Source: Rhizoclosmatium globosum
Lineage: Eukaryota; Chytridiomycota; Chytridiomycetes; Chytridiales; Chytriomycetaceae
Assembly (NCBI GenBank): GCA_002104985.1
Contig: MCGO01000045.1
Span: forward strand, 62,001 to 126,000
Reading direction: 5' to 3'
DNA length: 64,000 nucleotides
This document shows positions 36,121 through 63,657 of the stretch, piece by piece; within the stretch, counting starts at the first letter, position 1, and each line of letters begins with the position of its first letter. A program made the position numbers and the translations under genes. The notes under the pieces are model-generated. The model was given only the letters and a program-made list of their open reading frames with translations. It did not search any database and had not been told where the DNA came from.

Positions 36121-36201
36121 GGGCAGATGACCGAGCGGTCCAAGGTGCCACGTTAAGGCCGTGGTCTCTCCGGAGGCGTGGGTTCGATCCCACTCTGCTC
36201 A
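36121..36201 (+). tRNA. tRNA-Leu (anticodon AAG)
   Basis: Cloverleaf seen directly. Acceptor stem GGGCAGA pairs with TCTGCTC (one G-T). The D arm is standard. The anticodon stem CCACG/CGTGG (36148-36152 with 36160-36164) encloses the loop TTAAGGC, anticodon AAG at 36155-36157. There is a long class II variable arm, a T arm GTGGG-TTCGATC-CCAC, and discriminator A at 36201. A run of eight or more T directly downstream fits a Pol III terminator. No intron. Confidence 0.95.
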
Positions 36202-51962: not shown

Positions 51963-52991
51963 TCAAGCCGTTTTTGTCAAGACAGTGCTCATGACTGCCA
52001 TGCTCCGAGTCTTTTGTGTTGATTTTCCCAAATTGACACTTGGTGTTACCATATCAAAAACCATCGACACCAAATATCTAAAGAGCCCCATCGGTACAAT
52101 GCCATCATCATCTTTGCCTATATTGTTCAGACTCGAAATAGATACATTTGAGTTGAGCTTTCCCTTGTCGCTTACCAAACAGAACTTCAGGACCATCAAA
52201 AGCAACACAACAAGGTCCAAACAAAGCATAGCAACATGATACAATAATATGTGAGTCAAGGTACCGACTGGAAATAACGTGTAAAGCACATCGAACACAA
52301 AGGCAATCATTCCAAGCAAACTTGTCATTGCTCCAAACTGTGCGATTATCTTAAGACGTCCGTCAAGAGAAATTTCAGCATCAGTACTAAGCCTTTTGAG
52401 ATAATAAATAAACGACACAAAAACAGTTGTATCAAAAGTCACAGCCATTAATCCTGCCACTATTATCATTCCAATATCAATCTGATTCAAGAGCGCATAA
52501 TGTTGAGACAACTGGTTCTGTTTCAAATTAAGACTCACAACCAACGAATCAATAGCGACCGTTCCAACAAATACAACCGGTGACAAGCGAACAACCCATT
52601 GAAAATAACCCATAAACTTTGGAAATATCTTTTTAAGCACCTCACTCCCTCTCATCCACGCAAACATCATATAACACTGTACAACGCCATATATTGCCAC
52701 ATCTTCAGTAACAAACGCGGCGATTTCGTAGCCCCCAAATGTACAATCGTCCCAGCATTTAATTGAAAGACTTATGTGCCAGATTATTTGAAACAATGAA
52801 ATAGCCATAAGCAATCCGTTGAATGGATTCGCAACTTCCGTCCAGGCCATGTTCCCACTCACCTTTTCGCGCCAAATTAGAATCATGAGCGCGATAAATA
52901 ATAGCGACGATGCGGTTATCATAAAATATTGGAGCTTGATCAAGACTGAGATGGCGTCAGGTGAAATGGCATCGGCTATTGCTGTGGTCAT
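51963..52991 (-). CDS. 7TM family copy 2 (intact, intronless)
   Basis: The best reference copy of the family: 342 residues, single exon, ATG 52991. Seven helices: LQYFMITASSLLFIALMILI, NGLLMAISLFQIIWHISLSI, FVTEDVAIYGVVQCYMMFAW, VVRLSPVVFVGTVAIDSLVV, IDIGMIIVAGLMAVTFDTTV, FGAMTSLLGMIAFVFDVLY and LYHVAMLCLDLVVLLLMVL. Conserved family marks are WTEVANPFN before helix 2, a Cys pair in the next loop (KCWDDC), EDVAIYG in helix 3, W-x-RG-x-EVL after helix 3 and RLKIIAQFG before helix 6. The polar C-tail has about 75 residues. It does not carry DRY or NPxxY motifs and is not related to the class A receptors at 0.7-3.2 kb. Function unknown; presumably a chytrid-specific receptor family. Confidence 0.75.
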   Translation of the reverse strand: MTTAIADAISPDAISVLIKLQYFMITASSLLFIALMILIWREKVSGNMAWTEVANPFNGLLMAISLFQIIWHISLSIKCWDDCTFGGYEIAAFVTEDVAIYGVVQCYMMFAWMRGSEVLKKIFPKFMGYFQWVVRLSPVVFVGTVAIDSLVVSLNLKQNQLSQHYALLNQIDIGMIIVAGLMAVTFDTTVFVSFIYYLKRLSTDAEISLDGRLKIIAQFGAMTSLLGMIAFVFDVLYTLFPVGTLTHILLYHVAMLCLDLVVLLLMVLKFCLVSDKGKLNSNVSISSLNNIGKDDDGIVPMGLFRYLVSMVFDMVTPSVNLGKSTQKTRSMAVMSTVLTKTA

Positions 52992-53109: not shown

Positions 53110-54078
53110 TCAAGATGCCTCCACTCCATTATTTGATCCAAATTTTGACGTTGTGGTTGTGCGCGAAAGTACCCTACTCTCAGGTTTCCTTGTTGATGTG
53201 CGAATGGTTGAGTCCTTTCGCGATGATCTGATCCCAAATATTCGCGATACAAGATACCGCCAAAGTCCCATTTCTGAATCACTCTCTTGCTCTTCTTTAC
53301 TCGCAGATTTATCAGGGCTTCCTGATAAGATGATGTTGGAGGTTTGTTTCTCCTTTTCAGTTATGAGATGATGTTTCATCACGACGAGAAGTAATACAAC
53401 AATATCCAAGAATAACATTGCAACGTGGTAGAGTATAATGTGAGGTATCGTATGTAGTGGAAATAGAACTCCTAGAACATTGAAAACAAAAATGACCATC
53501 CCCAATAAACTCGTCACAGCCCCAAACTGGGCAATAATCTTCAATCTTTTGTCAAGAGAAATGTCGGCATCGGCACTGATCTTACGTAAATAGTACACAA
53601 AGGCAAAGAACACAGTCGTGTCAAATATCACAGCCGTCCACCCAGAAAGAGCCGTCAAAACAATATCAATGACGTTTAAGTACATATACACAGTTGAGAA
53701 AGTGTTTCCTTCTAAATTCATGGATATGACAACCGCGTCAACAATAACTGTCAGCACAAAGACGACAGGCGAAAGTCGCACAAACCATTGAAAATAATTG
53801 ATATACTTTGGAAACATCTTGCGAAGAACTTCGTATCCTCTCATCCACGCGAACTGCATGTAGCATTGAACAATGACGTAAATTGCAATGTCTTCAACAA
53901 GAAACGTGACAACTCCGTACACGACCGAATGGCAAGATTCCCAACATTTCAAAACGATACTCATGTGTAGGATGATTTGAAAGAGACAGATGACGGCAAG
54001 CAAGGTATTGATGGGGTTTATGATTTGTCTCCAGGACAGCTTTCCAATCGTTTTTTCCCGCCAAATCAGTCCTAAAAG
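53110..54078 (-). pseudogene. 7TM family copy 3, 3' part (disrupted by KDZ insertion)
   Basis: Reads from inside helix 1 (LLGLIWREKTIGKLSWRQ) to the C-terminus ending GSNNGVEAS at 53110, covering helices 2-7 without a break (EDIAIYVIVQCYMQFAWMRG, RLKIIAQFGAVTSLLG). The 5' end meets the left target-site duplication (54071-54078) and then the transposon. Its missing N-terminus lies at 60508-60632, on the other side of the element. Confidence 0.85.
54071..54078. repeat. Target-site duplication, left copy (CCTAAAAG)
   Basis: Eight bases immediately outside the left inverted repeat, identical and in the same orientation to 60508-60515. Eight-bp duplications are the known size for Zisupton/KDZ elements. 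Confidence 0.95.
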
Positions 54079-54186
54079 CACCACGTCTTTTTGGGGATGT
54101 AGAAAACACAACCGATTAAAATTTTGGCCTCCCGCACCATTCATCCCCCCCAAAAAGAGACGCACCGAGCGACAAGACTGAAACTT
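54079..54186 (+). repeat. Left terminal inverted repeat of the KDZ element (108 bp)
   Basis: Inverted match to 60400-60507; mismatches only at the 56th base (G versus T) and the 103rd base (A versus G), counted from the outer end. Contains a C7 run. Confidence 0.95.
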
Positions 54187-54263
54187 GGACAAGAACTTCA
54201 CCTCGTCTTGAAAGCAACGTCGAAACAAAGTTTCCCACAAACACATTGTCCACACCATCTACT

Positions 54264-57168
54264 ATGAGTAACAGACGAACCTGGAATCCACAAGATCATC
54301 GAAGCCAATTCCAGGATGTAGATGGAAACAATCAAAGTGTGTTCACAGATGCCACACCAGGCAATCCAAACCAAGAGCTCTATGACCAGCTCGCAGCAAT
54401 GGCAGATGAAGGCGACTACAGCGACGAGGACTATATTCATATGGATGCTGAAGGGCATGAAAGTGTCAGCGGGGTTTCAGGTTTGTTCGCACTCCTCTTT
54501 ATTGGCTGATTGTTAACCCTTGCCAGACACTGCTGATAATGGAAACAGATCGAATGAGGATGAACCTTTTGCTGTTGAAGATGGTTTGTGTTTCGTTGCT
54601 ACGATAGATTTCGTTAACGTGTTCTATGTAGAAACTCCTGCAGGCGGGCAGGATGTGGAGGAAGATGATGCGGATGTAGAGGAAGAGGAGGATGAAATGG
54701 ATGAGTTACTGCGATCTCACTTCAATGACATCTTTCCTGGCACTTCAGGTCCGAAGACTTCCTATTCAGAGCGACGCAGTTTCTGGCTACGGGCCTTCGA
54801 TTTGGCTCGGTTTCTTCTTGTTACTGCTTTTGCATGTTTCTTGTCCAGCGACTTGAATGGCCGGGTGTGCCAGCTGCAAGGCTGCGCCAACAAGGCAAGA
54901 TTCAAGTGTCACACGTGCTTTGCAGTTAGTTCCGAACTTCCGTGTTTCTTTTGCGAGCATGATGCCATCCTTCATGAGTGGAACTGCCTCTGTCATCGAG
55001 TTCGAAACGAAAACAATGCACCTCCGCCCCACGGACCACAGCTGGCGGTCATGTACGGAGGAGAGAGATTTGTTGTTGTGAACAAGCTCGGTCTGGAAAG
55101 CTGGTTCACTTTCATTCATTGACATCATCTCAAATCGTACGTGTATTGTGGTGTACAGAGCACCAGGACGGAACCCACCTTTGCTCAAGATTGATCAAAG
55201 ACTTTGGATTCTTTCCAGCTCGTATCAAAGACCTTAGTGAGTGTGCTTTATTCCAACCATCTGATTCTGACTTACACTAGATCACGCATTTTCAATACAA
55301 ATGATGGAGCTTGGTTTGAAGATGCGCTGCAAGTCAGTATCATATCAGAGCATTGCAGAGATATTCCTGGGAACAGAACACAAGGATGTGAGACGACTGC
55401 GATTGTATGAGCCCTTCATGGATGCATTGCGTCAGTTTGCGATTGTACATAACTTCTACCACCATGGAATCGTATCAGAGGCTATTCAAGCTCGGCACGG
55501 GTGTGGGAAAACAGAGTGTCCAGCTTGCATCGGAACGTCTCGAACCAAAAGCCCCATTGCTGTGGTAAATATGTCTTTTTATCTTATTGAAATCTAACTT
55601 TACTTTGTAGACTATGGATGGCTTCGAGTCAGCAAGCAAGAAATCTGTTGCAGCTGGTGGCGGTGGCAATCACGGATTCTATGCAATGGCAAAGGCATGG
55701 TTTTTCACTCCAACTGTGCCTGATGTTGTTCGTGAAGGGAAATCACAGGACGCTCCACGTCTGGGCTGTGAAGCTCAGCACAAAGCGGGCAGTGAAAGAG
55801 TTCCAACGTCTAATGGGAAAGACATTGATCGTATTATTCATGTAGATTGTGCGGCTCACTCCATTGTCCTTCGCATTTATGGTTTGTATTGAATTCTCGA
55901 CTTTGATATATATTAATGTTTTGGCAGATGCAAAAGGAGAGCGACTTCATTACGCTGACGACGTTCTGAGTTGGCTTGCTTCTTCGTTTGGTCACCGAGC
56001 TATCATCTTTGGATATGACGTTGCTTGTAAATTCTTGTCTCATTTGTTACATTATGGAATCTACAAAGTCGTGGCTGGACTTCTGATCTTGTTTATTCCT
56101 GCAATGCATGTGTATGCGCATGGAAAAGACTGCCAATGCTTGTTTGGTCCTCGAATTCTTTTTGGGTTAGGTCTCACTATGGACGGAGAAGGTCATGAGC
56201 GATTCAATTCTTGGCTTGCTCGAAGCATTGGGCTGACTCTGTGGGAAACAACAGAAAACCGGCAATTGGATATTGTGCTTGTCTCGGAAGACTATAATCG
56301 AGTGAAAATTCGAGGCTTGGTGGAATGGACACTGGGGAAACTCTTGCAGACATTTGCGTCACTCAAGAGTATTCGCGATGCTTTATCGAACTCTATTGAC
56401 CGTCTACGCAATTCAAAATACTCAGATGTTGTAGCTTCAATCACACGCCAGAGGCAAAGTTTGGCGAAGAAGGTGTCTGTTGACGTGCCATCGAACAAGG
56501 ACACACTGCGGGAGACCATCAACCATTATGCGCGAACAATTTTGTCTGTCCGAAAGTATATGAAAAAGAACCCAGGAACTAAATTGGCTGCACGTCTGAA
56601 AACGGCGCTGTCGGCTAACTTCACTGCTATGTACGCCAAGATTTCTGAATTCAATAGTAAGTCCATTACTATCTTGTGTTTACTTTTCTTAACATATGTG
56701 TCAACAGATCTAGAGCCAAAGCATGATCCTCCCTTGAATTTTGCTCAAGTTGAGAAAGACTTGGTTGTAGAATCGTCGATGCTAACCTCTGAGAACACTG
56801 AAACCCTGGTCACTCTCTATTGGCGATATTGTGAAGACCTGTATCACCATCGAAACCATTTGAGGAACCTCCGTGATTACTACTTGGACAAGAAGGCTAA
56901 TTTTTGGGAAGGGGCTTTGAAAGCAGAGGCCTTGGCAATGGAAGATGAAAGAGTTCGAGATGCTTGTATACAGTTGTTGGAACGTCGAATGTCAGTTGAA
57001 GCCGTTTATTGTGAGGACGCAGCAGCAGCACTTGAGCTGTTTGATAGTGGAGAAAACAGTGTTCTGTTTTTGGAAGAACATTTGAATCAAATCAATCATG
57101 AGTTCTGCTCGGAACAGTCAGTGTTAGCGGATCAGAACGTACGAGATGGTATTGCAACAGGAAAGTGA
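54264..57168 (+). CDS. KDZ transposase with cysteine-cluster N-terminus
   Basis: Multi-exon transposase. ATG 54264 (MSNRRTWNPQDHRSQFQDVD), followed by acidic exons (about 54.5-54.7 kb). A Cys/His cluster near 54860-54990 (CQLQGC, KCHTC, LPCFFCEHD, LHEW) resembles the CxC zinc clusters tied to KDZ transposases. RLIKDFGFFPARIKDL (55190) and CGKTECPACIG (55500) are also family-like. The catalytic core follows: TMDGFESASKK (55612), IHVDCAAHSIV (55840), FGYDVACKFL (56020), IPAMHVYAHGKDCQCLFGP (56100) and DGEGHERFNSWLARSIG (56185), supplying the expected Asp/Asp/Glu set. The C-terminal part is helical. Introns include about 55571-55609, 55880-55927 and 56657-56707. Stop at 57166-57168. No disabling change is evident, so the enzyme may be functional. 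Confidence 0.88.
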
Positions 57169-57169
57169 T

Positions 57170-58465
57170 ACACCATAATAAACAGTATCAAAACAACGCT
57201 ATAAAAATGGAAATTTATTCTTTTGATACGGAATACTCAGTTTGTGTTGTGTCAGTGACGGTGCAACTGAATGTACCCTATTCCAACGAGTGAAGTGTTT
57301 AGAAGCCGAAGAATACATATTTTGCGTTGGCCAACGTTTATATCTTCACAGCAAGTGAAAGCAATACGGCTTGCTTCAAAGCAAGGCATAGTTTGTCTGC
57401 CTTTCGTCAGTTATACATACATGTGCTTCATGCTTCTTTCGGCACTGCTCATTCAGAACTTTTGAAAGAGCCAGTGACATGCAACGTTTTCGGGTAGACT
57501 GCTTCAAGATTCGTTATTGCGCTGCATACTAGAATTCGAAAACGCGTCTTAATACAGTAATAATATATGAAATCATATTCATGCAAAACGTGTCCGTAAT
57601 CCATTGTTTGAGTTCCAAAAGCATGTCAAACAATAGCAAAACATCGGTTTGCTTATTATCTAGTTTAAGGGAGGGCTGCTCTTGTTGCAGAGCCTAACAT
57701 TAGCATTCAGATTTTAACCCTAACCCTTAGGGTTATAACCCTATCGAGACTTTCGCACACTTCTAATACCATATATGACCTTAATCAACGAGATTTATTC
57801 AACTTACGTCGTTTTGTGTCCGTGCCGGCCCCTAATTCGCAATGCGTACACTGGGGATAGGAATGCGGGGAATAGCCAGATGAGCGGCTCCTTTGGCTCA
57901 TCACTGGCCACTTCATTGATGGAACAAAAAGGATACAATCTCTGGGTAATGAATACTCACTCAAAGTCGTCTTACATGAAGCGATAACCAGACATCATAA
58001 ACATATTTATTTTGATTTGCAGTGGAATAGACGTGGGGTTTGTATCACTGTTTGCGACGTCTTTATCTTGTTTTCCATTTTGATTTCTCCTGGTACCACA
58101 GTACAGTCAAGTTTCAGGAGCGATTGCTCTAAATTGACTGATAACGCTCACTCGGATCATCCAGCAATCCAACTTCCGATCAATCAATCATAGTTCACCT
58201 GAGTTTGGAATAAGTACAATGTAGCAGACCAAATACTGCTAACCGCGAATCATAATACACTGCGGCCTTGACAACGACACGCGAGGGTTTGATTTCATCT
58301 ACCAAAAATGAGCCGTACGGCGATAGAGCAAAGGAATTCGTTAATAAAAAAGGATACAGTTTAAATGGTTGCTTACTGCAATAAGAATAACGATGAGTTT
58401 TAATTGCAACGAGCCCGAGCCAAAATTGAACCGAAACATAAGTGCTGAGGTTGAAACAATACGGA
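57170..58465. other. Non-coding middle of the KDZ element
   Basis: About 1.3 kb between the convergent transposase and cargo genes. No credible gene. Short telomere-like units (CCCTAACCC, then TTAGGGTTA, then TAACCC) occur at about 57716-57744. The open frame near 57775-57987 has no coding-like features. Confidence 0.5.
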
Positions 58466-58467
58466 AC

Positions 58468-60430
58468 TCATTCCCCATTTTCTTTGTTGAAATTACCCGA
58501 GCCGACTCCATCAATTTCATCAGCCTCGACATCGCTATGCTCGATTTCATTGAGTGTTTTATCACTCTCCCATATTTCATTGTCCTCATCTGCGACTTCG
58601 TCATTTTCTTGAACATCTTCACCAGTCTCGCCAGTCTCACCAGATTCACTGCATGATTCTTCAACATCATCATCTGCATCAACAACAGCTCCAGCCAACA
58701 ACTCGAATTTTATACTCTTTGCTTTCTTGAGAATCATGCTGCACTCCTATCACCGTAGAATACTTGTTAATTTGCAGTCGGGAGGAAAAGAGAGTGGAAC
58801 AATCAAGGAATCCAACTTCATGATAATACATCAATACAGCAACACAGTTTAAAACAAGATAAATGGGCCGGACGCTAACTCTACCTCAAGTGTCAACTGC
58901 TTGTAGTTGTTGGTGTCAGGAAAAGGGTAGTTTTTCATCACCAAACCCTTGAAGCCCGTTGGAGATAAGAGTCGCTTAAGATGAAGCTTTCGAGGCTCGG
59001 GAAGTCCGCATGTTTTGCAGGCTTCTTTGTATTGCTTGAAGAGGGTGGCCGCAACCAGACGTCGCTTGTTTCGGAGACCAGGATTAGCAGTGGCAGATAG
59101 AACCTCCGATTTAGTAATTGCTCGTTTTGTGAATTCGTGTTTGGCTTGTAGAAATAGCAATGGAGGTCGCACATTCGAGGAATACAGCATTTCACTGACA
59201 CGACGGCCAAATTTTCCGGTGCTGCAGTCTTTCACGACACTTGTGTTATCATCAAACGTAAAATATAATCCGTCGACTCCATAATTTGATTCTGTGGTGA
59301 TTCAGCAGTGATAGTCAACACCATCAATAAACATACCAAGTTTTGCGTGACACTTTCTAATAAGATTAAGAAGATCCGATTTCTCTTTCTGCAGCGTTTT
59401 TTCCGAGATAACAGCAGGCTTTCCAGCAGTGTTTAATTCCCTTGCTTTAGCCTCCCAGACAGCGTATAGAGCTGCATCCTCTGTTGTTTCTCGCTTCTCC
59501 ACGTGCTTGAAGAATGTTTTCGTACCATATTTAGCGTGATTTAACGCTTCCCAATCATCCATTTTGAGGGGAACGTAATTTGCATTTGTTTTGAATCCTT
59601 CCTCGTTCAGAGCTGCAATCCACGATCAGTCCATTAATGATGCTAACTCGACTTACCTTTGACTTTGGGACCAGCATACGTTGATAGATACACTTGATAA
59701 GTGCTGGTTTTAGGTGCTTCCCTTTCAATTATAGGCCGATCAATCAATTTTGTCTTCGTGACTGTGGGTTGAGGGATTTGCAAAGAGTCTAAAGGGTTTG
59801 ATTGAGCCGCTTGAAGGACTTGAAGTAACTGAGGGACTGTTAGGTTTCCGACGGCTGTTGTCCGAAACTGTATGTCAGAACATGGAGAACAAGCACATAA
59901 CCACCTTACTTTCCGAGGTTCCAATGTTCAAATCCATCCCCCGCACGGCACTACGGCTTTCATTTGCTCCTATGTTTAGAGATGGCACAGTCTTCAGGAC
60001 TTGATCAGCAGGTACGGCAGGCCCCACCCCTCCATTCTCTTGCAGTCCACATGTTGGATTTTTCTTCAAGGTATCTTTAATAAAGTCCTAGTGAGTAGGC
60101 AGTTAATCACTGGATAAAGACCACACGACAACCAACATCTATCACCACGCGATCCGTTTGAAACACTTGCGCCAAGTAGTTCCTAAACGGTTCAAACGGC
60201 TTATTGGCTTTGATTCCTCCGAAGATGACGAAATCGCTGATCAAGGCTTGCGTCTCGGCTGAAAGTCCTGTCTGTTGGGATCGGTTCTTCTTTGGCGGCT
60301 ATGTTATGTGCAATATTAGCAATAAGCTCTATTACTGAGGTTCTAACCATTTGGTAAACGTTTTTTGGGTGGTCTAATTGGCAGGAGTTCAGTGGGTTGA
60401 AGTTCCAGTCTTGTCGCTCGGTGCGTCTCT
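58468..60430 (-). CDS. Second (cargo) gene of the KDZ element, unknown function
   Basis: On the minus strand several exons read a consistent protein: near 60390 ELQPTELLPIRPPKKR; then TGLSAETQALISDFVIFGG and FEPFRNYLAQVFQTDR (60190-60270); after an intron, DFIKDTLKKNPTCGLQE (60070); VPQLLQVLQAAQSNPLDSLQ (59820); STYQVYLSTYAGPKVKG (59660-59700); MDDWEALNHAKYGTKTFFKH (59560); FTKRAITKSEVLSATANPG (59120). A final exon after an intron of about 140 nt ends in a strongly acidic tail (stop at 58468). The frame has an in-frame TGA at 59302-59304 between LGMFIDGVDYHC and ITTESNYGVDG. No domain is recognised; charge pattern (basic middle, acidic tail) would suit a DNA- or chromatin-associated protein. 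The start codon is unresolved and may lie close to the right inverted repeat. Confidence 0.6.
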
Positions 60431-60507
60431 TTTTGGGGGGGATGAATGGTGAGGGAGGCCAAAATTTTAATCGGTTGTGTTTTCTACATCCCCAAAAAGA
60501 CGTGGTG
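60400..60507 (-). repeat. Right terminal inverted repeat of the KDZ element (108 bp)
   Basis: Inverted copy of 54079-54186 with two mismatches. The outer end reads GACGTGGTG directly before the right target-site duplication. Confidence 0.95.
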
Positions 60508-60515
60508 CCTAAAAG
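60508..60515. repeat. Target-site duplication, right copy (CCTAAAAG)
   Basis: Identical to 54071-54078. On the coding (minus) strand it reads CTTTTAGG and encodes the L-L-G of helix 1. Confidence 0.95.
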
Positions 60516-60632
60516 CGCCAGAAAAATAGCTGAGGATATAGCAATCATCAAGTATTGCAACTTGAACATGACCAACACAAAATCAGGTGATATGGCATTG
60601 GCATTTGAATCTGCTGTCTCACTCTCCTCCAT
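60508..60632 (-). pseudogene. 7TM family copy 3, 5' part (disrupted by KDZ insertion)
   Basis: ATG 60632 starts MEESETADSNANAISPDFVL and runs into helix 1 (KLQYLMIAISSAIFLALLG), matching ISPDAISVLIKLQYFMITAS of the intact copy at 52991. The coding sequence ends exactly in the right target-site duplication (60508-60515) and continues in frame with 54078 if one duplication copy is counted. Beyond it the frame runs into the transposon repeat. Confidence 0.88.
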
Positions 60633-63585: not shown

Positions 63586-63657
63586 GGCCTTATGGTCTAG
63601 TAGTATGATTCTCGCTTTGGGTGCGAGAGGTCCGGGGTTCAATTCCCCGTGAGGCCC
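63586..63657 (+). tRNA. tRNA-Pro (anticodon TGG)
   Basis: Cloverleaf seen directly. The acceptor GGCCTTA pairs with TGAGGCC (one T-G). The anticodon stem CTCGC/GCGAG encloses the loop TTTGGGT, with the anticodon TGG at 63618-63620. The T arm is CGGGG-TTCAATT-CCCCG and the discriminator is C at 63657. A GTTTTTA tract follows as a likely Pol III terminator. No intron. Confidence 0.95.

What the first reader, a model, noticed from the sequence alone, without database searches (positions are those of the whole stretch)
54071..60515. Complete, recent KDZ transposon with both ends and target-site duplication resolved
Seen: 108-bp inverted repeats with two mismatches, flanked by identical CCTAAAAG octamers, enclosing a KDZ transposase without evident lesions. 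Known: Zisupton/KDZ elements make 8-bp duplications, and fungal KDZ copies are often degenerate or of unclear boundary. A full-length chytrid copy with exact ends is therefore a valuable reference and may be active.
Basis: partly seen in the sequence, partly recalled or inferred. Interest (0 to 1): 0.88.

Follow-up and report, generated by a model that had tools for sequence, protein, structure and literature searches.

The report
Two-gene KDZ transposon in a chytrid
This is a real, complete "jumping gene" of the KDZ family in the chytrid fungus Rhizoclosmatium globosum, but its transposase gene looks broken in this copy, and its more interesting feature is an unnamed second gene that it shares with several related jumping genes in the same genome.

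Summary
The boundaries are right: element 54079-60507 (6,429 bp), 108-bp inverted ends with two mismatches, 8-bp duplication CCTAAAAG. A second copy, about 99.6% identical by substitutions, has the same ends and another octamer. The joined flanks give an open host frame that aligns gap-free to its tandem paralogue. Of the copies whose two ends I read, 13 of 13 have perfect 8-bp duplications, all different. The protein matches Pfam KDZ.

Two parts of the reading fail. The transposase is not lesion-free: near 55026 the window copy is one base shorter than its sister and leaves the frame that five related families keep. The sister is broken elsewhere. And fungal KDZ elements with resolved ends and observed jumping are published.

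It is present in 6 of 6 families with resolved ends, one only by weak similarity, and under purifying selection in the five tested. I infer an accessory transposition or anti-silencing protein; untested.

The parts
54071..54078 (.). left target-site duplication CCTAAAAG
54079..54186 (+). left terminal inverted repeat, 108 bp, begins CACCACGTCTTTTTGGGG
54264..57168 (+). KDZ transposase gene, at least 5 exons (about 54264-54480, 54527-55236, 55281-55564, 55611-55881, 55928-57168; borders from my own splice model, compared with relatives). The frame is lost near 55026 as assembled. Presumed catalytic D, D, E codons at 55617, 56017, 56188 (assignment from recall and conservation).
55026..55026 (+). 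C-run length difference from the C224 copy; here the window copy leaves the frame kept by C224 and by families C1, C404, C401/C113, C35 and C400
57169..58467 (.). stretch between the two converging genes with no gene model; no match to the third reading frame found in other families
58468..60350 (-). second gene, 500 aa, 7 exons (60350-60348, 60298-60137, 60087-59910, 59854-59657, 59612-59337, 59291-58885, 58746-58468), all introns GT..AG, open throughout, no Pfam match
   Evidence: for the C404 homologue the same splice model reproduces the annotated protein P0001
60400..60507 (-). right terminal inverted repeat, 108 bp
60508..60515 (.). right target-site duplication CCTAAAAG
60508..60632 (-). 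5' part of the interrupted host gene (MEESETADSN...AIFLALLG; multi-pass membrane protein by eye)
53110..54078 (-). 3' part of the interrupted host gene (LIWREKTIG...)

Best explanation
A cut-and-paste DNA transposon of the KDZ (Kyakuja-Dileera-Zisupton) superfamily, inserted in a coding exon of a membrane-protein gene in Rhizoclosmatium globosum. It has two converging genes: a KDZ transposase and a lineage-specific second protein. Shown: exact ends, 8-bp duplications, a second insertion of the same family, an open second gene whose relatives sit at the same place in all six families with resolved ends, and a lost transposase frame in this copy as assembled. Inferred: the transposase cuts at the CACC ends and joins to 8-bp staggered target cuts. 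The second protein helps this, by binding ends, building the complex, or countering host silencing. This copy could now move only if supplied with transposase in trans.
For: Ends and duplications: 13 of 13 copies with both ends read have a perfect 8-bp duplication, all different (9 computed; C401 and C113 computed, C157 and C90 read by eye). Family: PF18758. Empty site: the joined flanks give a continuous frame that aligns gap-free (59% over 281 aa) to the neighbouring paralogue at 52131-52982. Second gene: relatives at the same place and strand in 6 of 6 families with resolved ends; the sixth (C290/C400) by weak similarity only (21%, E 6.8e-5 against C404). Selection: pN below pS in 10 of 10 pairs among five families, dN 0.24 / dS 1.7 for C35 versus C401. 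Action in trans: two 4.3-kb copies that share a deletion of the transposase core (99.1% alike) sit at sites with different octamers.
Against: No expression, excision or binding data. The lost frame rests on one homopolymer base and could be an assembly error. The second gene was found at 13 of 23 KDZ places; a diverged KDZ lineage (C2) showed none in 6.5 kb, so the second gene is not shown to be general to KDZ. The C290/C400 version is only weakly similar and gave no hit with the window protein. The dN/dS columns were filtered for local identity, which favours low values; synonymous sites are saturated in 9 of the 10 pairs, and C400 was not in that test.
Confidence: 0.87

Rival explanations
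1. The window copy is intact and possibly active; the lost frame is a base-calling error in a C run, or is bypassed by splicing.
For: A one-base homopolymer difference is the commonest long-read assembly error (recall). The second gene is fully open. An automatic gene model can splice round the spot.
Against: Five related families and the sister copy keep this stretch as one exon, with a conserved CC...AR segment (followed by HSLT in most) that the window copy loses. The sister copy is itself broken elsewhere, so decay in this family is plausible.
Confidence: 0.3
2. The second gene is passenger cargo, not part of the transposition machinery.
For: KDZ elements in fungi frequently carry accessory genes (stated in PMC12477816, passage), and TET/JBP genes are such cargo (PMC12730594, passages). 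The second protein diverges faster than the transposase.
Against: It sits at the same place and strand in 6 of 6 resolved families, with purifying selection in the five tested. A third reading frame is open in C404 and in part of C1, but carries stops in C35/C90 and C401/C113, with no match in the window family, so dispensable cargo does decay here.
Confidence: 0.35
3. The two near-identical copies are a segmental duplication or allelic contigs, not two insertions.
For: The assembly seems to contain near-identical contig groups elsewhere (similar hit sets on C404/C166/C10 and C20/C168).
Against: The flanks differ and the octamers differ.
Confidence: 0.02

Closest known systems
Zisupton / Dileera-type KDZ DNA transposons (8-bp duplications)
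   Same: PF18758 transposase, terminal inverted repeats, 8-bp duplications; the literature side is from passages of PMC12730594
   Different: Which of the three KDZ branches it belongs to was not tested. It carries an unnamed converging second gene, and no TET/JBP gene was seen in the pieces scanned.
Cryptococcus neoformans KDZ1, KDZ2, KDZ3
   Same: Fungal KDZ elements with long inverted repeats (241, 139, 169 bp) and duplications of 8 bp (KDZ1) or 4-8 bp (KDZ2 and KDZ3) (PMC12810828, passages)
   Different: They are about 9-11 kb, have a CxC1 domain and were observed jumping. The full-length chytrid elements are 6.1-6.5 kb (one 15.1-kb copy apart) and movement is inferred from sequence.
Kyakuja (two Laccaria families as described)
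   Same: KDZ superfamily; termini begin with CA
   Different: Kyakuja-1_LB and -2_LB have 7-bp duplications and no inverted repeats (PMC12730594, passage); here there are 8 bp and 108-bp repeats.
Two-component elements such as PIF/Harbinger (transposase plus Myb-like protein)
   Same: Two genes, the second a candidate DNA-binding helper; Nuwa-type Harbinger elements encode two proteins (PMC12730594, passage)
   Different: No Myb/SANT or other Pfam domain in the second protein. Similarity is of arrangement only.

Membership tests
KDZ superfamily | PF18758 transposase domain | tested here: met
   E 1.7e-13, above cut-off; relatives P0004 E 3.4e-20, C400 E 9.3e-19
KDZ superfamily | cysteine cluster of the CxC kind before the catalytic domain | tested here: inconclusive
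   Cysteines are conserved across the five families aligned and a UniRef name of P0004 says CxC2-like, but no CxC model matched P0004 or C400 at E <= 1
KDZ superfamily | D, D, E catalytic residues | tested here: inconclusive
Zisupton/Dileera type | 8-bp target-site duplication with terminal inverted repeats | tested here: met
   8 bp in 13 of 13 copies with both ends read
Kyakuja | 7-bp duplication, no inverted repeats | tested here: not met
   8 bp and 108-bp repeats
Zisupton versus Dileera | placement in a transposase tree with named references | not tested
   no named reference sequences were at hand
Autonomous, active copy | unbroken transposase frame | tested here: not met
   frame lost near 55026 as assembled
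TET/JBP-carrying KDZ | TET/JBP dioxygenase gene inside the element | tested here: not met
   only KDZ matched at or above cut-off in the nine reading-frame pieces given, nothing in the spliced second protein; not every frame of the element was scanned

The most novel reading that the evidence does not exclude
Chytrid KDZ elements of this CACC-ended lineage are a two-component transposon system: a conserved second protein, with no relative found outside the genus Rhizoclosmatium in a capped protein search, is required with the KDZ transposase for mobility (end binding, complex assembly or escape from silencing).
Probability: 0.4. Interest if true: 0.65.

Novelty: new variant of a known kind. 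Interest (0 to 1): 0.45.

Why it matters
KDZ transposons are little understood. A single chytrid genome with at least 13 copies whose ends and duplications are read, from six families and including a mobilised non-autonomous pair, gives a clean set for working out end recognition. A conserved second gene would make KDZ mobility a two-protein problem in this lineage. The public gene model BCR33DRAFT_720863 at this locus is a fusion of host exon, transposon end and second gene, and should not be used as a host gene.

Tried and rejected
I first took the window's own frame after 55026 (...GPQLAVMYGGERFVVVNKLGL...) as the true one; the relatives showed the opposite, so it was rejected. An automatic splice model that skips the spot in the window copy was rejected because the relatives keep one exon there.

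A first protein search with acidic tails on the query filled the candidate list and returned one hit; tails were cut for (3 hits, two of them R. globosum itself). Both searches scored only the 8,000 candidates sharing most words. PDB sequence search gave only weak hits, best E 0.16.

A small inverted repeat inside the inverted repeats was tested in 7 element ends. Shuffles reached it in 0 of 2000 for the window family, a fraction 0.001 for C401 and 0.0385 for its relative C388, but 0.24-0.85 for C35, C404, C400 and C1, so I do not claim it as a general binding-site design.

Literature: searches covered only the open-licence PMC library. In their listings I saw no account of a KDZ element in a chytrid or of this second gene; listings were cut (40 of 65, 15 of 3,851 and 15 of 92 papers shown). 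The 2014 paper naming KDZ is not held, so I cannot say this was not in print. Of the papers cited, I saw only the passages returned.

Full report
WHAT WAS CHECKED. The window holds inverted repeats of 108 bp at 54079-54186 and 60400-60507 with two mismatches, flanked by CCTAAAAG on both sides. The coordinates in the finding (54071-60515) are those of the element plus both duplications. The element is 6,429 bp. Its G+C content (0.438) equals that of the rest of the window (0.437).

WHERE IT IS. The window is part of a 56.9-Mb genome in 420 contigs. Five contigs have exactly the lengths of contigs that carry Rhizoclosmatium globosum proteins: C361 341,175; C224 471,403; C1 1,023,498; C113 616,842; C90 625,778. 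The organism is therefore R. globosum, order Chytridiales.

THE ENDS ARE RIGHT. A second copy on contig C224 is 6,432 bp, begins and ends at the same bases, and has a different octamer (GTTATCCC) and different flanks. It differs by 25 substitutions plus indels in the alignment. A search for the 18-base terminus with up to 2 mismatches found six places: the four ends of these two copies and two 2-mismatch hits on C68 and C79; the reversed control pattern found none. In the host, the element interrupts a minus-strand coding exon. Joining the flanks with a single octamer gives one open frame, which aligns without a gap (59% over 281 residues) to the tandem paralogue at 52131-52982. That independently fixes both the ends and the 8-bp length.

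NOT ALONE. PF18758 matches at 26 rows, 23 places, in this genome; the tool calls such counts lower bounds. For 13 copies I could read both ends; all 13 have a perfect 8-bp duplication and no two are alike. They are window, C224, C1, C404, C35, C290, C400, C388, C279 (computed), C401 and C113 (computed), and C157 and C90 (read by eye from the output). They share the terminus CACC followed by TAGT, TGGT or ACGT and then a T-rich run. The C290 and C400 copies are identical over 6,139 bp at sites with different octamers. C388 and C279 are 4.3-kb copies, 99.1% alike, that lack the catalytic core of the transposase. They share that deletion but sit at different sites with different octamers, so the deleted form itself has moved, which I read as transposase acting in trans. 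Copies and fragments without both ends read (C69, C24, C418, C2, C377, C151, C101 and the unfetched places) were left out of the count of 13.

THE TRANSPOSASE IS NOT LESION-FREE. In families C1, C404 and C401/C113 one exon runs through the segment with the CC...AR...HSLT pattern, and the spliced C35 and C400 proteins run through it too. The C224 copy keeps that frame. The window copy is one base shorter in a C run near 55026 and falls out of it. The C224 transposase has an in-frame TGA at the position matching 56956, leaving 69 codons behind it. Its second gene has a one-base frameshift matching 59738. So neither copy, as assembled, has both genes open. The one-base differences are in short homopolymers and may be assembly errors; the TGA is a substitution and is less likely to be one.

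THE SECOND GENE. On the minus strand, converging on the transposase gene, seven exons with GT..AG introns give 500 aa without a stop. No Pfam model matches at E <= 1. A relative sits at the same place and strand in 6 of 6 families with resolved ends: window/C224, C1, C404, C35/C90/C157, C401/C113 and C290/C400. The first five are clearly related to one another; the C290/C400 version matches only weakly (21% identity, E 6.8e-5 against C404; no hit with the window protein). The gene was found at 13 of the 23 KDZ places. At C2, 6.5 kb were read and nothing matched at E <= 0.01. The other nine were covered only by genome-wide searches with the window and C404 proteins, which also miss the C290/C400 version. 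For C404 my spliced model matches an annotated protein of Rhizoclosmatium hyalinum, HDU99_003632, with two differences by eye over the model's 499 residues, so the splicing is supported by an independent annotation. Among about 5.8 billion proteins the tail-free profile found three proteins: that R. hyalinum one and the R. globosum annotations of the window and C224 copies themselves. Only the 8,000 best candidates by shared words were scored, so distant relatives may be missed. The search with two KDZ transposases (cut-off set at E 1e-20) found 11 proteins in Rhizoclosmatium, Obelidium and Chytriomyces, R. globosum's own included.

SELECTION AND CONTROLS. For C35 versus C401 the second gene has dN 0.24 and dS 1.7 over 420 codons. 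The other nine pairs among five families have saturated synonymous sites, with pN 0.33-0.45 against pS 0.79-0.84; C400 was not included. Columns of low local identity were dropped, which favours this result. A useful contrast is a third reading frame with a C..C..H..H motif on the same strand. It is open in C404 (174 aa) and in part of C1, carries stops in C35/C90 and C401/C113, and has no match in the window family. The second gene stayed open in families where this third frame decayed.

HOW IT MOST LIKELY WORKS. By analogy with other DDE transposons (established knowledge), the KDZ transposase binds the inverted ends, cuts the element out and joins it to target strands cut 8 bp apart. The second protein has a basic first 70 residues in 5 of 6 families (pI 9.3-11.3; C404 5.2) and an acidic last 90 residues in 5 of 6 (pI 4.1-4.4; C400 6.1), with the ends of some models chosen by me. 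That would suit a DNA- or chromatin-binding helper, but this is inference only.

KNOWN OR NEW. KDZ elements with inverted repeats and 8-bp duplications are known in fungi, including jumping ones in Cryptococcus (PMC12810828, passages) and a Dileera element of Puccinia graminis with 8-bp duplications (PMC12730594, passages). Accessory genes in fungal KDZ elements are known in general (PMC12477816, passage). The element is therefore a new member of a known kind. The conserved second gene makes the group a new variant, with the caution that the 2014 founding paper could not be read.

Noticed in passing
window 58885-60632, minus strand: The public gene model BCR33DRAFT_720863 (P0002, 513 aa) is a chimera: host exon, inverted repeat read as protein, then the transposon's second gene.
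   Followed up: yes
L044 5466-5987 (minus) and L040 5971-6213 (minus): A third reading frame with a C2H2-like motif in two other KDZ families, with stops in two more and no match in the window family; no Pfam match above cut-off.
   Followed up: partly
L054, L055 (C388, C279): Non-autonomous 4.3-kb KDZ pair that shares a deletion and sits at two sites with different octamers.
   Followed up: partly
L052, L053 (C290, C400): Two KDZ copies identical over 6,139 bp at different sites with different octamers, the most alike pair of those compared.
   Followed up: partly
C90:184941-200082: A KDZ copy of the C35 family spans 15.1 kb between its ends but keeps a perfect 8-bp duplication, so it probably holds a nested insertion.
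   Followed up: no
window 54086-54158: The inverted repeat holds an inner inverted copy of TCTTTTTGGGG, reached by 0 of 2000 shuffles, but such a repeat is not general to other families.
   Followed up: partly
window 57718-57741: A short telomere-like palindrome (CCCTAACCCTTAGGGTTATAACCC) inside the element, between its two genes.
   Followed up: no
window 52131-52982 and 53110-54078: The interrupted host gene belongs to a large family (120 matches in the genome) with no Pfam match; multi-pass membrane protein by eye.
   Followed up: partly
P0001 versus C404: The second protein of the C404 family and its R. hyalinum counterpart differ at only two residues (by eye) over the 499-residue model, which may reflect close kinship or recent transfer.
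   Followed up: no
window 36121-36201 and 63586-63657: Two tRNA genes.
   Followed up: no
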